Shown: piece after piece, positions 14,504 to 48,154 of the stretch | How the letters are laid out: each line of letters opens with the position of its first letter | Position numbering within the stretch: the first letter of the stretch is position 1 | NCBI GenBank assembly: GCA_003151975.1 | Contig: PLZD01000055.1 | Location: forward strand, 60,474-110,361 | Direction of reading: 5' to 3' | DNA: 49,888 bases | Source of the DNA: Elusimicrobiota bacterium | Lineage (GTDB): Bacteria; Elusimicrobiota; Elusimicrobia; UBA1565; UBA9628 | The notes under the pieces: generated by a model | Databases searched by the model: none | Seen by the model: the letters and a program-made list of their open reading frames with translations, nothing else | What the model was told of the DNA's origin: nothing | Position numbers and translations under genes: made by a program

Positions 14504-16059
14504 GCTTTGGGCTTGGGAGTTCCGAGAATCTCGCGCAGCCTTTGGGCCAGCAGGTCCGGGTTCAGAGGTTTCTGCAGGAAGTTCACGTTGGGATCGAGCA
14601 GGTCGTGCCGGAGCATGCTGGCTTCGGTGTAGCCGGATATGAAGATCACCTTGAGGCCCGCGCGCACCGCCAAGATGCGCTGGGCCAACTCGTCGCCGCG
14701 CATACCGGGCATGACGATGTCGGTCATCAAGAGGTCCACGCGTTCTTTGTGGCGCTCGAACAAGGCTAGAGCGGTCTCGGGCTTGTCGGCCTCCAGCACC
14801 GAGTACCCCGCCTCGCGCAGGGCGCGCACGAGGAACTTCCGGACCATCTCGTCGTCCTCGACGAGCAATATCGTCTCGGATCCACCCATGGCCTTAACCG
14901 CGGGCCTGTCTGTTCTGAGCGGCTGGGCGGCTTCCTCGACTCTCGGAAAATAGATCTTGAACGTCGAGCCCTTCCCCGGCTCGCTGTAGACGTAGATGCT
15001 GCCTCCGCTTTGCTTGACGATCCCGTAGACCGTCGAGAGACCCAGGCCTGTCCCCTTGCCTTTTTCCTTAGTGGTGAAGAACGGCTCAAAAATGCGCGAG
15101 AGCGTCGTCGCGTCCATGCCATGGCCGGTATCGCTGACAGCGAGCATGACGTGGGGGCCGGGCGCGGCCTCGAGGTGCATTGAGACGTACTCCGCGCTCA
15201 GTTCCACGTTCGCCGTTTCCAGCACGAGCCTGCCCCCATGGGGCATGGCATCGCGCGCGTTGACCACCAAGTTCATGATGACCTGCTCGATCTGACCCGG
15301 GTCGGCCTTGATGGTTCCGAGGTTCTTGGCCAACGATGCCGCAAGATCGACGTCCTCTCCTATCAGGCGGTGGAGCATCTTCTCGATGTCGGCGACGATG
15401 AGATTGACGTTCAGGGCTCTGGGCTGCAGCACCTGCTGCCGGCTGAACACCAAAAGCTGGCGCGTAAGGGAGGCGGCGCGCTCCCCGGCTTTCTTTATCT
15501 CCTCAACGTCGGCGCGGTTGGGGTCCTCGGGAGGCATGCTGTTGAGCAGGAAGTGGCTGTAGCCGGAGATCGCCGTCAGGATGTTGTTGAAGTCGTGCGC
15601 GACGCCGCCGGCCAGCCTTCCCACGGCTTCCATCTTTTGGGACTGGCGCAGCTGCTCTTCCAGCTTGTCGCGCTCGCGCGCCAGTCGGCGTTTTTCCAGG
15701 GCGCCCCGGACCGCGGAAGGCAGGCGGACGATGTTTTGCTTGAGGACATAGTCGTAGGCGCCCGCCTTGATGCAATCCACGGCCGTCTCCTCGTTGATGC
15801 TGCCCGTGACGATGATGCAGGGCGTCCCGGAAGCGGATTCCCGCACGGAATTGAGAGCCTGCATCCCGCCGAAGCCGGGCAGAGAATAATCCAGGAGAAT
15901 CAGGTCGGGGGAAAATGCCTGGAGGTCCCGGACGAACTCATCGCGGGACCGGGCGCGCCGCGCCGTGAATCGCAGGCCGGCCTTGGAGAGCTCCCGGCGC
16001 GAGAGCTCTTCGTCATGCGGATTGTCCTCGAGGAACAGGATCTTGAGCGCTTCTTCCAT
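14500..16059 (-). CDS. Hybrid histidine kinase REC-HisKA-HATPase-REC
   Basis: In this 519-residue soluble kinase residues about 1-120 are a receiver ([35 protein letters not shown]). A coiled coil leads to HisKA with the phospho-His in [18 protein letters not shown] near residue 153. The HATPase has N box [13 protein letters not shown]1 DTGHGM, F box FEPFFTTK and G2 [13 protein letters not shown]-terminal receiver (about 400-515) has [16 protein letters not shown] and LQKPL. There is no membrane segment, so input probably comes through the N-terminal receiver. The ATG at 16059 was preferred to an upstream in-frame start, because it starts right before the receiver and avoids a 34-bp overlap. 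Confidence 0.92.
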
Positions 16060-30334: not shown

Positions 30335-32248
30335 ATGGCGCAGAGCGTTCGATTGTTGGTTGAGGACGGCATTCTTCGTTTGGCCGCCGATTCCCGTTCA
30401 CCAATACATCAGGGAACGCATTACATTTACTTGGTCAACGTACTTGGCCTTGAGCCCATCGAAGAACCAGAGCCTGGTTTCAAGATCTCCCTGGGAGCAT
30501 CCAAACAAGCCCTTATTCGGCAACTGACCGACTACTTCGCGGAAGCCGGAATTGCTCTGACGCTTGAGGGTACCGCGAATGAGATTTCGCGTCGCTTAGA
30601 GAGTGATGCAAAGACGTTGGAAGATGCGCGGATCGCGGGAGAGCGATTGAAAGGCGCTCCCGCGAAGACCGCAGCGCCTGCGATTCCAGGGTTTATGAGG
30701 GAGCTTAAGCCTTATCAAGTTCCTGCTGTGCAGCATGCTGTCGACGTTCGCAATGCTGCAAATTTTTCCGTTCCTGGAAGTGGGAAGACAACGATAACGC
30801 TTGCCGTCTACGCCATCCTAAAAGCCAGGGGTGAAGTTGAGAAACTCGTGGTTGTTGGTCCCCGCGCGTGCTTCATGCCTTGGGAAGAAGAGTTCGAAGC
30901 ATGTCTGGGCCGCAAGCCAGCGGCTGTCCGCATCTCTGGCGATCGCACCCGGCGCATCGGCCTTTACCGGGACGCCGATGCGGCTGAGCTGGTCTTGTTA
31001 ACATACCAGATGGCTAGCAATGACGCGGACGATGTGGCGGCTTATCTTCAACGGAATAAATGCTTCCTTGTCTTGGATGAGTCACATTATATCAAGCGTC
31101 TGGAAGGCGGAAAATGGGCGAACGCTCTTTTGGATCTTGCTCCCTTCGCAGCGCGTCGTCTTATCCTCTCAGGTACGCCCGCACCCAATTCCTTGCTAGA
31201 TCTCTGGTCGCAATTTGCCTTCCTTTGGCCGAACCCACCACTTCTTGGACAACGCGACAACTACCGTTTTCGGGTCGATCAACGCGGAAACGAGTACGAT
31301 CGGATCAAGAAGAGGCTGAGTCCGTTCTTCTGGCGCATAAAAAAAGACGACCTCAAACTACCTCCTCCCACATTTCACAAAGTCGATGTGCCGCTACGCC
31401 CCTATCAGAGGAGAATCTACGATGCGATCGGCGCCAAGGTTCTCAAGGACGTCGTAAAGGCTCCCAGCGATAGATCGAAACTCCGTATCTGGCGGAAGGC
31501 CAAGATGGTGCGGCTTCTTCAAGCTGCATCGAACCCGTCTCTCCTCGCTGAGTACTCAACCGAATTTCGGATTCCGCCGTTGGACGCCTCGGGCCTCCCT
31601 GTGGATCAGCTTATCGAGCAGTATTCTAAATTTGAATTTCCCGCGAAGCTGGAGTGTGCGGAAAAGCTTGTGCGCAAGCTTGTCAAGAGAGGCGAGAAGG
31701 TGATCCTCTGGAGCACCTTCGTCCATAACATCAAGACGTTGGAATCTAGGATGAAGGACCTCCGTCCGCTCTCCGTATTCGGAGAGATTCCTAAGGATGA
31801 TGAGGAGAACGAAGAATTCAATCGCGAACAGATAATCAAACAATTCAAGACGCCGGGAACCTCTCCGGTCCTTATCGCGAACCCAGGCGCCTGTGCGGAA
31901 TCCGTGTCCCTCCACAAGATTTGCAAGCATGCAGTCTACTTGGACCGCACATTTAATGGGGCGCAGTACCTTCAATCCCTCGACCGGATTCATCGCGTCG
32001 GTCTGAGCCCAAGAGACAAGGTCCATTATTACATCATTCAGGCTCTGGATAGCGTCGATACTGTTGTCGATCAGAGACTTGAGGACAAGAAGAAGCGGAT
32101 GCTGGAGTTGCTTGAGGACGAGCTTCCCGTTCTAAACCTTGAATCCTCGTCGGAGGATGTCTCCGAGGAGTCCGACGAAGAGGCAGATTTTACCGCGCTC
32201 GTTGCGGAATTAAAGAAAGAGTTCGCGCCAGTAGCTCATGGTCGATAA
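30335..32248 (+). CDS. SNF2-type DNA translocase/helicase
   Basis: This 637-residue SF2 ATPase has motif I NFSVPGSGKTTITLAVY near 145, motif Ia VVVGPRACFMPWEEEF, motif II VLDESHYIK near 247 (DESH), motif III LILSGTPAPNS, motif V ANPGACAESVSLHKIC and motif VI DRIHRVG near 555. It lacks a visible nuclease domain of its own. SNF2 proteins in DISARM-, BREX- and Zorya-like systems translocate on DNA. The Walker A follows an N-terminal region of about 130 residues that I do not recognise. It overlaps the DUF3883 gene by 11 bp. Confidence 0.88.
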   Translation: MAQSVRLLVEDGILRLAADSRSPIHQGTHYIYLVNVLGLEPIEEPEPGFKISLGASKQALIRQLTDYFAEAGIALTLEGTANEISRRLESDAKTLEDARIAGERLKGAPAKTAAPAIPGFMRELKPYQVPAVQHAVDVRNAANFSVPGSGKTTITLAVYAILKARGEVEKLVVVGPRACFMPWEEEFEACLGRKPAAVRISGDRTRRIGLYRDADAAELVLLTYQMASNDADDVAAYLQRNKCFLVLDESHYIKRLEGGKWANALLDLAPFAARRLILSGTPAPNSLLDLWSQFAFLWPNPPLLGQRDNYRFRVDQRGNEYDRIKKRLSPFFWRIKKDDLKLPPPTFHKVDVPLRPYQRRIYDAIGAKVLKDVVKAPSDRSKLRIWRKAKMVRLLQAASNPSLLAEYSTEFRIPPLDASGLPVDQLIEQYSKFEFPAKLECAEKLVRKLVKRGEKVILWSTFVHNIKTLESRMKDLRPLSVFGEIPKDDEENEEFNREQIIKQFKTPGTSPVLIANPGACAESVSLHKICKHAVYLDRTFNGAQYLQSLDRIHRVGLSPRDKVHYYIIQALDSVDTVVDQRLEDKKKRMLELLEDELPVLNLESSSEDVSEESDEEADFTALVAELKKEFAPVAHGR

Positions 32249-45184: not shown

Positions 45185-45694
45185 CTAGCTCCGCGAGAAA
45201 ACGCTGAAGTTCGATGATTCCTCGATGATAAACTCGTCCACGTCAAGATTAGGCACGGTCTCTTCTTTGCGGTTGGCCGGCGGTAGGTCCTTGAACTTCT
45301 CGATGAACATTTCCAGAAGGTGCGCCTCAACCGTGCGGGGCCAGTCCAGGTCAGGGTCGTCATCCGCTACCCTGTCGAAGCGATAGGCGAGTTCGTGCTT
45401 GTCGCAGTGATCGTTGAGGAGAGGATTCTTCTTTCGCAGCAGATGGGCAGACAGGCGTTGATGGAGCCAGCCCGAGCCGATGTAAACGACACGGCTGCGT
45501 CTCTTGGTGGGCCAGTTTCGGTGCTTGTAGTCCCAAGAGCAGCACTTGGCGTAGATGCAATAGACCCCGCGGGCTTTCGGCACGTTTCGAAGAATGAAAC
45601 TTGCTTGCCTCGGAGAAAAGGTCAGTTCCCGCGACCAGTTGATGCTGACCGACCAACGTGTCCTCCGTTGAGTCGATTCGTCATAGATGTGCAT
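45185..45694 (-). CDS. GIY-YIG-type nuclease-like protein
   Basis: The 169-residue protein has the GIY-YIG core: KARGVYCIYAK near 41-51 and RVVYIGSGWLHQRLSAHLL near 68-86, with the conserved Tyr residues and the Arg of the helix. Further on lie the metal-site Glu in RTVEAHLLEMFIEKF near 126 and Asn in DLPPANRKE near 142, as in family members ending with LP-x-x-N. The domain fills most of the protein, with no DNA-binding extension. It starts the minus-strand series, 49 bp before the next gene. A TATACA box lies 5 nt before the ATG, which could make it leaderless. Confidence 0.72.
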   Translation of the reverse strand: MHIYDESTQRRTRWSVSINWSRELTFSPRQASFILRNVPKARGVYCIYAKCCSWDYKHRNWPTKRRSRVVYIGSGWLHQRLSAHLLRKKNPLLNDHCDKHELAYRFDRVADDDPDLDWPRTVEAHLLEMFIEKFKDLPPANRKEETVPNLDVDEFIIEESSNFSVFSRS

Positions 45695-45872
45695 GGGAAT
45701 GTATAACCCTAAGATTTTACAAATCTTGAAACGCCGGTGCTGACGGAGGCCCCTCTGATCTGCCGAGAGTCATTGAGGGCTCAGCCCGCTTAACCGCATT
45801 TCGAAAATGGCGAAGCTGCCCGTGAAGCAGGCTTTTCTGAATCTCTTGACTTCGAACTCGCGGCTTCCGCGC

Positions 45873-45940
45873 GGGTAGCCGTTTCCTCGGCCCCTCTGGG
45901 GCCTCAGCTCCGTCTGGCCTGAAGGCCGAATCGGACGAGA
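45873..45940. repeat. 68-bp direct repeat, copy 1
   Basis: This segment matches 47943-48010 with one difference (G at 45912, A at 47982). It begins GGGTAGCCGTTTCCTC and contains two perfect hairpins, GGCCCC-TCT-GGGGCC and GGCCT-GA-AGGCC. It is part of the structured region. The copies lie 2070 bp apart and bracket the ECF sigma module. Confidence 0.9.
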
Positions 45941-46039
45941 GCTTCATAGCTCTCTCTCAGGACTCCGGGAAAGGGGACTGCCGGGCAAGCCTCGCGTCCC
46001 GGCCCTGTTGGCCGGGCGCTCGGTCGACCGCCCTTCGGG

Positions 46040-46062
46040 CACCGCGCGTACAGCGCGCGGTG
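46040..46062 (+). repeat. Hairpin with TACAG loop, copy A
   Basis: CACCGCGCG-TACAG-CGCGCGGTG has perfect 9-bp arms and is preceded by CGGG. Copy B at 46229-46251 keeps the outer CACCG/CGGTG, the loop and the preceding CGGG. It replaces the three inner base pairs on both arms, so pairing is conserved while sequence is not. Confidence 0.85.
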
Positions 46063-46228
46063 GCACACTCTCCGGAAGAGATCCCCCGCATTGGATAACG
46101 ACTGACCAATAGGACCGGCCCGCTCCCAGCGGGCCAGTCCTTGGGGCCTCTGCGGCCCCCTTCCTCCGCGGCGCCGGACGACCCATCACCGATCCAGGCG
46201 GCGCTGCCGCGCCGTCGGACCCTCCGGG

Positions 46229-46251
46229 CACCGATCGTACAGCGATCGGTG
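46229..46251 (+). repeat. Hairpin with TACAG loop, copy B
   Basis: CACCGATCG-TACAG-CGATCGGTG has perfect 9-bp arms. Compared with copy A, inner GCG/CGC pairs are replaced by ATC/GAT with pairing intact. This is internal covariation evidence for a functional structure. Confidence 0.85.
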
Positions 46252-46335
46252 TCGGCTTTCCCTAACCCCTTTGGGGACGCCTGTGAGAGAGCAAACAACA
46301 ACAACGGCGAGCAGGCCGCCAGGAGACACGGGAAC

Positions 46336-46530
46336 ATGAAAAAGAAAGACGCGACGCAGCTGGGCGGGGGAAACAACGGCTGGCTTTGGATGGCGAGCAT
46401 CAAGCGCACGACTCGCTTCGAGGTCGAGCGGGCGCTGAACAAGGTCGCAATCCACTGGAAAGGGAGAAGCCGGTCGGGCGCGCGGAGCACCGGCGCGAAC
46501 GCCTACGCCTTCAACCTGAGGGGGGCATAG
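46336..46530 (+). CDS. Small basic protein of the ECF sigma module
   Basis: The 64-residue protein starts MKKKDATQLGGGNNGWLWMA and continues IKRTTRFEVERALNKVAIHWKGRSR to the end YAFNLRGA. It is strongly basic with several Trp, suggesting nucleic-acid contact, but I recognise no family. AGGAG lies 11 nt before the ATG. The ECF sigma gene begins 3 bp after its stop, so the two are co-transcribed. It directly follows the structured RNA region. Confidence 0.6.
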   Translation: MKKKDATQLGGGNNGWLWMASIKRTTRFEVERALNKVAIHWKGRSRSGARSTGANAYAFNLRGA

Positions 46531-46533
46531 ACC

Positions 46534-47136
46534 ATGTCACGAGATCAACGGTGTGGTCGGCGCGCGCGGCTCAGACGGGCGTTGGAACGCTTCCTGACGG
46601 GTCGCGATAGGCGCGATCTGTTCGTGGAGGCGTATCGGCTTACTCGCGACGAGGGTGAAGCTTGGGAGCTTGTCACCGAGGCGTGCTACCGGGCGCTCAA
46701 ATCCTGGCGGCGCTACGACGCGGGAAAGCGGTTCTTCTCCTTTCTCCGCGTGATTCTGCGAAATGCGTTTCTCGACTCGCGGAAGTCGGCGCCTCATCGT
46801 TGGGGTGTCTCGCTGTACTCCCAGGTCGACGGGCAGGAGTATTTGGTCGAGACTCTGGCCGACTCGGAGGCGAGCGCGGCCGAACTATTGGAGCGGGAGG
46901 AGCGGGAGCGAAGTGTCGCCGGCGCGATAGCGCGTCTGCCGACCGCTTATGGGCGCGTGGTCACGCTCTGCACGCTGGGCGGCTTGAGCTACAAAGAGAC
47001 GGCGCGACACCTGAAAATCCCGATGGGAACGGTGCGCTCCAGGCTCTTTAACGCCCGAAGGATGTTGCGGCGGGACGGCGGTCTGGACCGCTTCGCCGCC
47101 GATTACGGCGTGAAGTTGCAGGGGAGCGGGCGCTAA
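46534..47136 (+). CDS. ECF-type RNA polymerase sigma factor
   Basis: In this 200-residue protein sigma region 2 includes DLFVEAYRLTRDEGEAWELVTEACYRALKSWRRYDAGKRFFSFLRVILRNAFLDSRK. Region 4 is GAIARLPTAYGRVVTLCTLGGLSYKETARHLKIPMGTVRSRLFNARRMLRR, with a clear HTH. This two-domain plan is the ECF/group 4 type. No anti-sigma or membrane protein is adjacent. A GAGGGGGG ribosome site lies about 8 nt upstream. ECF-like sigmas with tiny neighbours occur on integrative elements and may drive the element's own genes (inference). Confidence 0.9.
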   Translation: MSRDQRCGRRARLRRALERFLTGRDRRDLFVEAYRLTRDEGEAWELVTEACYRALKSWRRYDAGKRFFSFLRVILRNAFLDSRKSAPHRWGVSLYSQVDGQEYLVETLADSEASAAELLEREERERSVAGAIARLPTAYGRVVTLCTLGGLSYKETARHLKIPMGTVRSRLFNARRMLRRDGGLDRFAADYGVKLQGSGR

Positions 47137-47286
47137 GTGGCGCGATATCGGCCTTGCGAGAAGGTCGTCGAGATGTACCCGGCCTGGAAGCTCTGCGAGC
47201 GTCCGGCACCGGCGAAGACGGGACGGTGCGACCTGCACCCGGTCAAGAAGCTCTGGCCGGAGAACGATACCAAGGGGGGAATATGA
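47137..47286 (+). CDS. 49-residue Cys-containing protein
   Basis: A GTG codon directly after the sigma-factor stop opens a 49-residue frame ending in a TGA that overlaps the next ATG (ATGA). The product has Cys at 7, 20 and 31 and a His at 34 (PCEKVVEMYPAWKLCERP and GRCDLHPVKKLW). A C-x12-C-x10-C-x2-H pattern could bind zinc. Coupling on both sides supports a real gene, although no Shine-Dalgarno site is needed or seen. Confidence 0.55.
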   Translation: MARYRPCEKVVEMYPAWKLCERPAPAKTGRCDLHPVKKLWPENDTKGGI

Positions 47287-47681
47287 ACGAAGTAGAAAAC
47301 TTCTGGAAGGACGCCGAGGTTATCTCGGCGTACACGCGCGCGCAGGCGTTGGAGGACGGCTTCCTGGTGGAGCTGGACGCGACCGCGAAGGAGGCGGGGT
47401 TCAAATGGCCGGTCGCGGTCACGCGGACGGTTTACGAGGTCCTCAAGCCGTCAGCGGCGTTGAAGGCCCAGGGGCAAAGCTTCGCGGGGCGGGCGTGGGA
47501 CATGCTAGCGATTCTCCGCTACGAGTCGTGCCGCGCCAGCGATAAGGCGGTGATCCTCTTCGCGCCGCTCTTCGTGCTGGAGCCCGGTAAGGCTCCTCGG
47601 CCCGTCGAGTTCAAGGCCGAGTGCGGACCCGGCGACGACGGGGAGCCGGTCATCACGATATCGCTCCCGGAGGAAGACTAA
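47283..47681 (+). CDS. DUF6573-like protein
   Basis: The 132-residue protein starts MNEVENFWKDAEVISAYTRAQA, then LEDGFLVELDATAKEAGFKWPVAVTRTVYE. This is the characteristic opening of the DUF6573 family, found widely on plasmids, phages and integrative elements, with no known function. The remainder includes AWDMLAILRYESCRASDKAVILFAPLFVLE. GGGGGGA lies 4-5 nt before the ATG. Its presence supports the mobile nature of the module. Confidence 0.78.
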   Translation: MNEVENFWKDAEVISAYTRAQALEDGFLVELDATAKEAGFKWPVAVTRTVYEVLKPSAALKAQGQSFAGRAWDMLAILRYESCRASDKAVILFAPLFVLEPGKAPRPVEFKAECGPGDDGEPVITISLPEED

Positions 47682-47682
47682 C

Positions 47683-47874
47683 ATGTGGGCCGTCGAAAAT
47701 CGCACCGATGAAATTCCGGCGTGGCCGGAGCCTTTCGAGACGATGAGCGAGGCGCGCGAATTTATTCGCGCGTTCCGCGCCCGCAACGAGGAGCAGGGCT
47801 ACTACCTGACGGCGGACGGCATGCGCATCTCGCCCATACATGTAGAGCTTGAGATCGTGCCGGTGGAGGACTAG
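47683..47874 (+). CDS. Small acidic protein of the ECF sigma module
   Basis: The 63-residue protein has Trp- and Glu-rich stretches (MWAVENRTDEIPAWPEPFE) and a helix EAREFIRAFRARNEEQGYYL. The C-terminus ISPIHVELEIVPVED looks like a beta strand. I recognise no family. A strong GGAGGAAG site lies 8-9 nt upstream of the ATG, which begins 1 bp after the previous stop. It is the last gene before repeat copy 2. Confidence 0.65.
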   Translation: MWAVENRTDEIPAWPEPFETMSEAREFIRAFRARNEEQGYYLTADGMRISPIHVELEIVPVED

Positions 47875-47942: not shown

Positions 47943-48010
47943 GGGTAGCCGTTTCCTCGGCCCCTCTGGGGCCTCAGCTCCATCTGGCCTGAAGGCCGAA
48001 TCGGACGAGA
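47943..48010. repeat. 68-bp direct repeat, copy 2
   Basis: This is a one-mismatch copy of 45873-45940, 69 bp after the last gene of the ECF module. The flanking sequence does not continue the structured region, so only this part is duplicated. It could be an end of the element, a recombination site or a terminator-like structure. Confidence 0.9.
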
Positions 48011-48154
48011 CCTCGGAATTTGGTCTTCCCTATAGCCCAGTTATTTGGGGGGACATCAACGTCAACGTCGTCATTGGCCCGTTTACCTGGGGGAGCGCAA
48101 GTAGATGGAAGATGCCTAGTTTTGTAAACTGCCTGCATCGGTCAATAGAATAAA

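What the first reader, a model, noticed from the sequence alone, without database searches (positions are those of the whole stretch)
45859..46292. Large structured RNA candidate with internal covariation
Twelve local hairpins with perfect or near-perfect arms and a long-range 12-bp closing helix fill about 430 nt that lack a plausible gene. Two hairpins share CGGG-CACCG...TACAG...CGGTG but swap three inner pairs on both arms, so structure is kept while sequence changes. High GC makes some hairpins expected by chance, but the paired change is not easily explained that way. The position upstream of an ECF sigma mini-operon on a mobile module fits an ornate mobile-element RNA.
Basis: partly seen in the sequence, partly recalled or inferred. 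Interest (0 to 1): 0.82.

Follow-up and report, generated by a model that had tools for sequence, protein, structure and literature searches.

The report
Folded leader of conjugation-linked mini-operon
A real, conserved, elaborately folding non-coding stretch of about 390-430 bases sits directly in front of a small gene set (with a sigma factor) that appears to come from the first-transferred region of a conjugative DNA element in Elusimicrobiota bacteria; it and a second, sequence-unrelated family in the same position match no described RNA family and may work as a switch or single-strand promoter when the DNA enters a new cell.

Summary
In detail: window 45859-46292 folds far better than shuffled sequence (z about -5.8) and has a 12-bp closing helix. 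The two look-alike hairpins differ by two swapped pairs, not three. Homologues exist: two full copies and one truncated copy (about 71% identity) in another Elusimicrobiota genome (G003), where 17 pairs change on both sides and stay paired. No Rfam family matches. In G003 the copies lie on a contig with a MOBF (TrwC/TraI) relaxase, TraC, a TraD-like coupling protein and ParA/B, each directly before a tiny-gene operon. The window's operon (sORF, ECF sigma, DUF6573) has a counterpart there, right beside the relaxase, but behind a second, sequence-unrelated leader ('type B'). Type B occurs at 28 places in 18 Elusimicrobiota genomes, usually before ECF sigma and DUF6573, with strong covariation. 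So this is a family of interchangeable folded leaders of a mobile mini-operon. A strand test that reads RNase P correctly (12/12) gives no mRNA-strand signal; it leans to the complementary strand, the one expected to be transferred in conjugation. Best reading (about 0.45): an Frpo/ssi-like single-strand element for early expression. Main rival (0.33): an mRNA leader controlling translation. Nothing here proves function.

The parts
45859..46335 (+). Type A structured leader: 5' domain, P1-closed domain, RBS hairpin and SD, up to the start codon
   Evidence: fold z -5.8; homologues G003 C74:28706-29135 and 30411-30793; covariation
45873..45943 (+). 5' domain of the leader (two GGCC-rich hairpins), copy 1 of a 71-nt direct repeat
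   Evidence: hairpins also in the G003 copies
45949..45961 (+). P1 5' strand; can pair with the 3' strand (P1) or with the upstream GAGAGC arm; the two are mutually exclusive
   Evidence: pairing probabilities (window 39% down / 61% up; G003 copies 98% down and about 98% up)
45967..45973 (+). long-range helix GGGAAAG, partner of 46256-46262; compensating change G-C to A-U between homologues
46040..46062 (+). hairpin CACCGCGCG-TACAG-CGCGCGGTG, replaced by an unrelated hairpin in G003
46066..46073 (+). conserved, mostly unpaired CACTCTCC
46112..46141 (+). hairpin GGAC...GTCC with covarying inner stem (window CGGCCCGC; G003 GAGCTC)
46180..46194 (+). invariant GACCCATCACCGATC
46229..46251 (+). hairpin CACCGATCG-TACAG-CGATCGGTG, covarying with GGCAGC-CTAC-GCTGCC in G003
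46256..46262 (+). CTTTCCC, 3' strand of the long-range helix
46280..46292 (+). P1 3' strand
46305..46326 (+). conserved small hairpin GGCG-CGCC and SD AGGAGA
   Evidence: identical or nearly so in all three full copies
46336..46530 (+). 64-aa ORF; relative in G001 (52% id) behind a type B leader
46534..47136 (+). ECF sigma factor
   Evidence: Pfam Sigma70_r2 and r4_2; 35% to the one next to the MOBF relaxase in G003
47137..47286 (+). possible 49-aa ORF (GTG start)
   Evidence: sequence only
47283..47681 (+). DUF6573 protein
   Evidence: Pfam PF20213, 4e-25; 49% to the G003 copy
47683..47874 (+). 63-aa ORF
47943..48013 (+). truncated second copy of the leader's 5' domain; right edge of the GC-rich module

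Best explanation
It is a cis-acting, folded operon leader from the leading region of a MOBF conjugative element of Elusimicrobiota, here left as a 2.1-kb remnant. Most likely it works on single-stranded DNA. During conjugation the entering strand, which is the minus strand and the template of the operon, folds upstream of each leading-region operon; the folded DNA lets RNA polymerase, perhaps with the element's own ECF sigma, transcribe the small establishment genes before the second strand is made. Shown: conserved covarying structure, position against the start codon, repetition before successive operons, conjugative context, and a fold that leans to the minus strand. Inferred: single-strand promoter action, the sigma's part, and the position of oriT.
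For: G003 contig C74 carries a TrwC/TraI relaxase, TraC, a TraD-like coupling protein and ParB, ParA and DUF932, with three type A and three type B leaders before successive tiny-gene operons. The operon homologous to the window's ends next to the relaxase and points towards it, as leading-region genes do; a second such arrangement is G020 C273. The window's genome has a relaxase of the same family on another contig (52% over 904 aa). Strand test: RNase P favours its true strand in 12/12 pairs, while type B favours the minus strand in 9/11 and 7/8 after composition control, and type A is about 2.7 sd towards minus. In type B each leader's outer arms form a near-palindrome of about 50 bp reaching into the coding sequence, a dsDNA mimic past the start. 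Frpo elements are known to precede leading-region operons repeatedly (PMC11541004, PMC9849209).
Against: No sigma-70 -35/-10 pair in either leader. Several type B units stand alone among chromosomal genes without conjugation genes recognised in the stretches read. Type B masks SD and AUG, which fits RNA-level control. Strand-neutral pair counts in the type B core lean to the plus strand (G:T 60, A:C 34). Type A has only two independent sequences. oriT was not located.
Confidence: 0.45

Rival explanations
1. A cis-regulatory mRNA leader. The plus-strand RNA folds and controls translation or transcription of the operon; the P1 5' strand switches between an upstream hairpin and the closing helix, and in the type B analogue the closing helix hides SD, start codon and first codons.
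For: Every full copy ends at an SD and start codon; conserved RBS hairpin in type A; type B P1 pairs SD-AUG-first codons with an arm about 230-300 nt upstream, with covariation; balanced alternative pairing in type A; plus-strand G:T excess in the type B core.
Against: The strand test gives no plus-strand signal where RNase P gives one in 12/12 pairs; over full-length type B, G:T to A:C is 39:36 against 65:18 for RNase P; the pairing runs about 15 codons into the gene.
Confidence: 0.33
2. A stand-alone ornate trans-acting RNA (OLE, GOLLD or ROOL-like) that happens to lie before the operon.
For: Size, P1-closed multi-branched fold, invariant single-stranded motifs, mobile context.
Against: No Rfam match; always joined to an RBS; several copies per element before different genes; no plus-strand signature.
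Confidence: 0.1
3. Mainly a DNA-level element without regulatory role: a recombination or integration hotspot or replication hairpin that spreads the mini-operon.
For: 71-nt direct repeat at both ends of the 2.07-kb unit; sharp GC change at the edges; arms matched within each type B locus but different between loci, as quasi-palindrome correction would give.
Against: Does not explain conservation of SD and start-codon position or two unrelated families in the same slot.
Confidence: 0.1

Closest known systems
Frpo / ssi single-strand DNA promoters of F and ColIb-P9 leading regions
   Same: Folded non-coding element directly upstream of leading-region operons of conjugative elements, present in several copies, MOBF relaxase nearby
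   Different: About 390-580 nt, multi-branched, very GC-rich, no sigma-70 boxes found, two families unrelated in sequence, host phylum Elusimicrobiota, ECF sigma in the operon
OLE, GOLLD and ROOL large ornate RNAs (PMC12286853)
   Same: Large, elaborate, covarying structure; GOLLD and ROOL lie on mobile elements (phages)
   Different: No sequence or covariance-model match; joined to an RBS and found before several operons of one element
RBS-masking mRNA leaders and riboswitches
   Same: Alternative helices, and in type B a helix that hides SD and AUG
   Different: Much larger, repeated before unrelated genes of one element, pairing enters the coding region, no mRNA-strand wobble signature

Membership tests
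Frpo/ssi single-strand promoter | lies in the leading region of a conjugative element upstream of its operons | tested here: inconclusive
   G003 copies are beside MOBF relaxase, T4SS genes and ParAB, but oriT was not located and the window copy is an isolated remnant
Frpo/ssi single-strand promoter | stable fold of the transferred strand | tested here: inconclusive
   both strands fold; evolution leans to the minus strand, but strand-neutral counts are mixed
Frpo/ssi single-strand promoter | -35 and -10 boxes rebuilt in the stem | tested here: not met
   no sigma-70 pair on either strand; promoters of other sigma factors could not be tested, so it is not filed as an Frpo
Frpo/ssi single-strand promoter | RNA polymerase starts on ssDNA in new transconjugants | not testable with these tools
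   needs experiment
Rfam families incl. OLE, GOLLD, ROOL | covariance-model score at or above gathering cut-off | tested here: not met
cis-regulatory mRNA leader | conserved plus-strand structure joined to the RBS of a gene | tested here: inconclusive
   position met; plus-strand G:U signature absent compared with RNase P
cis-regulatory mRNA leader | transcribed as part of the operon mRNA | not testable with these tools
   no RNA-seq

The most novel reading that the evidence does not exclude
Two unrelated families of large folded leaders gate leading-region operons by strandedness: silent on duplex DNA because the start site is masked in the full transcript, active on the entering single strand, with an element-borne ECF sigma reading the folded promoter.
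Probability: 0.13. Interest if true: 0.88.

Novelty: new variant of a known kind. Interest (0 to 1): 0.6.

Why it matters
If right, early expression from single-stranded conjugative DNA, known best from plasmids such as F and ColIb-P9, would extend to a deep, mostly uncultured phylum with a different architecture and its own sigma factor. If the RNA reading is right instead, these are two new large leader-RNA families tied to conjugation. Either way the type B set (28 places, 18 genomes) gives a ready covariance alignment for a feature with no Rfam or paper record found here.

Tried and rejected
Rfam at gathering and permissive thresholds: none. Similar DNA in phages and plasmids: none for the window leader; one 59-nt Burkholderia match with the G003 copy judged chance. 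Viral contigs by six patterns: only chance hits. Genome-wide 20-base pattern: only G003 plus chance hits without further similarity. Weak model hit in G005 (E 0.006) not confirmed by nhmmer. G023 match (81% over 43 nt) rejected: no leader features around it. A first RNase P control with mixed orientations was wrong and was redone (corrected in 82). The conserved CACTCTCC could pair with the SD (5 bp), but the ensemble does not support it. Searches found no paper naming DUF6573 and none useful on Elusimicrobiota conjugation.

Full report
Observation. The stretch 45859-46292 folds with z -5.8 against dinucleotide shuffles and its complement with z -5.4. The 12-bp closing helix and the twin hairpins are there; the twins differ by two compensating pairs, not three. 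Rfam has no match over the window, even with permissive thresholds on this part except one far sub-threshold hit elsewhere in the module.

Homologues. In 44 genomes of the same family one other genome, G003 (Elusimicrobia bacterium RBG_16_66_12), holds two full copies and a third cut by the contig end, about 71% identical. Aligned with the window, 114 consensus pairs are 94% canonical (37-46% when slid), and 17 carry changes on both sides (0-2 when slid; mean 5.7 and at most 12 in shuffles). Indels of 1, 4, 5, 7 and 8 nt argue against coding. A covariance model of the 3' half found only these two genomes among 341 of the phylum, apart from one weak hit; a 20-base pattern over about 85,000 genomes found only G003 beyond chance. 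Type A is therefore rare, or rarely binned.

Boundaries. All three full copies run to a conserved hairpin and SD (GGCGAGCAGGNCGCCNGGAGA) a few bases before a start codon, so the element is an operon leader of about 390-430 nt, not a free-standing block. In G003 the second copy starts within a few bases of the previous stop codon. The CTCTCTCTC strand of P1 can pair upstream or downstream; predicted occupancy downstream/upstream is 39/61 in the window and about 98/2 and 0/98 in the two G003 copies, so a two-state switch is possible.

Context. The window module (45.86-48.01 kb, about 65% GC in flanks of 45-58%) holds a 64-aa ORF, an ECF sigma, a DUF6573 protein and small ORFs, and ends in a 71-nt copy of the leader's 5' domain. 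In G003 the copies are on a 33.8-kb contig with a TrwC/TraI relaxase, TraC, a TraD-like coupling protein and ParB (Pfam), plus ParA by sequence and DUF932. There the homologous ECF sigma (35%) and DUF6573 (49%) operon lies beside and points towards the relaxase. The window's genome has a same-family relaxase on contig C31. This is the layout expected of a leading region, though oriT is inferred, not found.

A second leader family. In G003 the matching operon has a different leader, type B. A motif search and a profile found it at 28 places in 18 Elusimicrobiota genomes, mostly right before an ECF sigma and DUF6573; DUF6573 operons in ten genomes have it and the window's has type A. Type B (27 aligned): 79 pairs, 91.5% canonical (41-57% slid), 43 with double changes (at most 33 in shuffles). 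With an upstream domain it reaches about 560 nt and 158 well-supported pairs. Its outer arm is the imperfect reverse complement of SD, start codon and about 15 codons. Types A and B are thus interchangeable parts in one slot, which argues for the same job.

Which strand folds? With RNase P from the same bacterial family as control, pairwise consensus folds that allow wobble favour the true strand in 12/12 pairs after column-shuffle correction. Type B favours the minus strand in 9/11 (core) and 7/8 (full), type A by about 2.7 sd. Strand-neutral counts are mixed: type B core G:T 60 against A:C 34, full length 39:36 by distinct contexts, outer arms 41:50, RNase P 65:18. The mRNA-strand signature expected of a leader RNA is weak or absent; the minus strand, which would be the transferred template strand, is mildly favoured. 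Energies used RNA parameters and type A rests on two independent sequences, so this is suggestive only.

Mechanism. The reading that joins these facts is an element that folds on the entering single strand and lets the small operon be expressed early, as Frpo does for F (PMC9849209, PMC11541004). It is not filed as an Frpo: the -35/-10 boxes were tested and not found. The chief rival is an mRNA leader that masks the start site, strongest for type B. Solitary chromosomal type B units show that the unit also persists away from recognisable conjugation genes.

Verdict. The structure is real and absent from Rfam; 'ornate RNA' is only partly right; the best description is a new family of folded operon leaders on conjugation-derived DNA, with mechanism open.

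Noticed in passing
L219:1720-2260, L161:555-800, L163:15019-16467 and others: Type B leader: a second large covarying leader family, 28 places in 18 Elusimicrobiota genomes, sequence-unrelated to the finding but in the same operon slot.
   Followed up: yes
L219:2212-2260 and other type B loci: Unrelated proteins behind type B leaders share a similar N-terminal stretch (MKK/N..C...G.DGKG) that is the downstream arm of the palindrome, as if the leader carries its own coding tag.
   Followed up: partly
window 45873-45943 and 47943-48013: 71-nt direct repeat flanking the 2.07-kb unit; suggests loss or gain of whole leader-operon units by recombination.
   Followed up: partly
L011:9880-10018: A possible third structured leader before the DUF932 gene in G003.
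   Followed up: no
L216:369-3620 (G027 C32): Three adjacent genes that look like tyrosine recombinases directly after a type B, ECF sigma and DUF6573 unit; identified by eye only.
   Followed up: no
window 45185-45694 (-): Divergent gene next to the module with a GIY-YIG-like motif by eye; no Pfam match.
   Followed up: no
L219:9485-9555 and 15369-15439: Two 2dG-II riboswitches in G009 above the Rfam cut-off.
   Followed up: no
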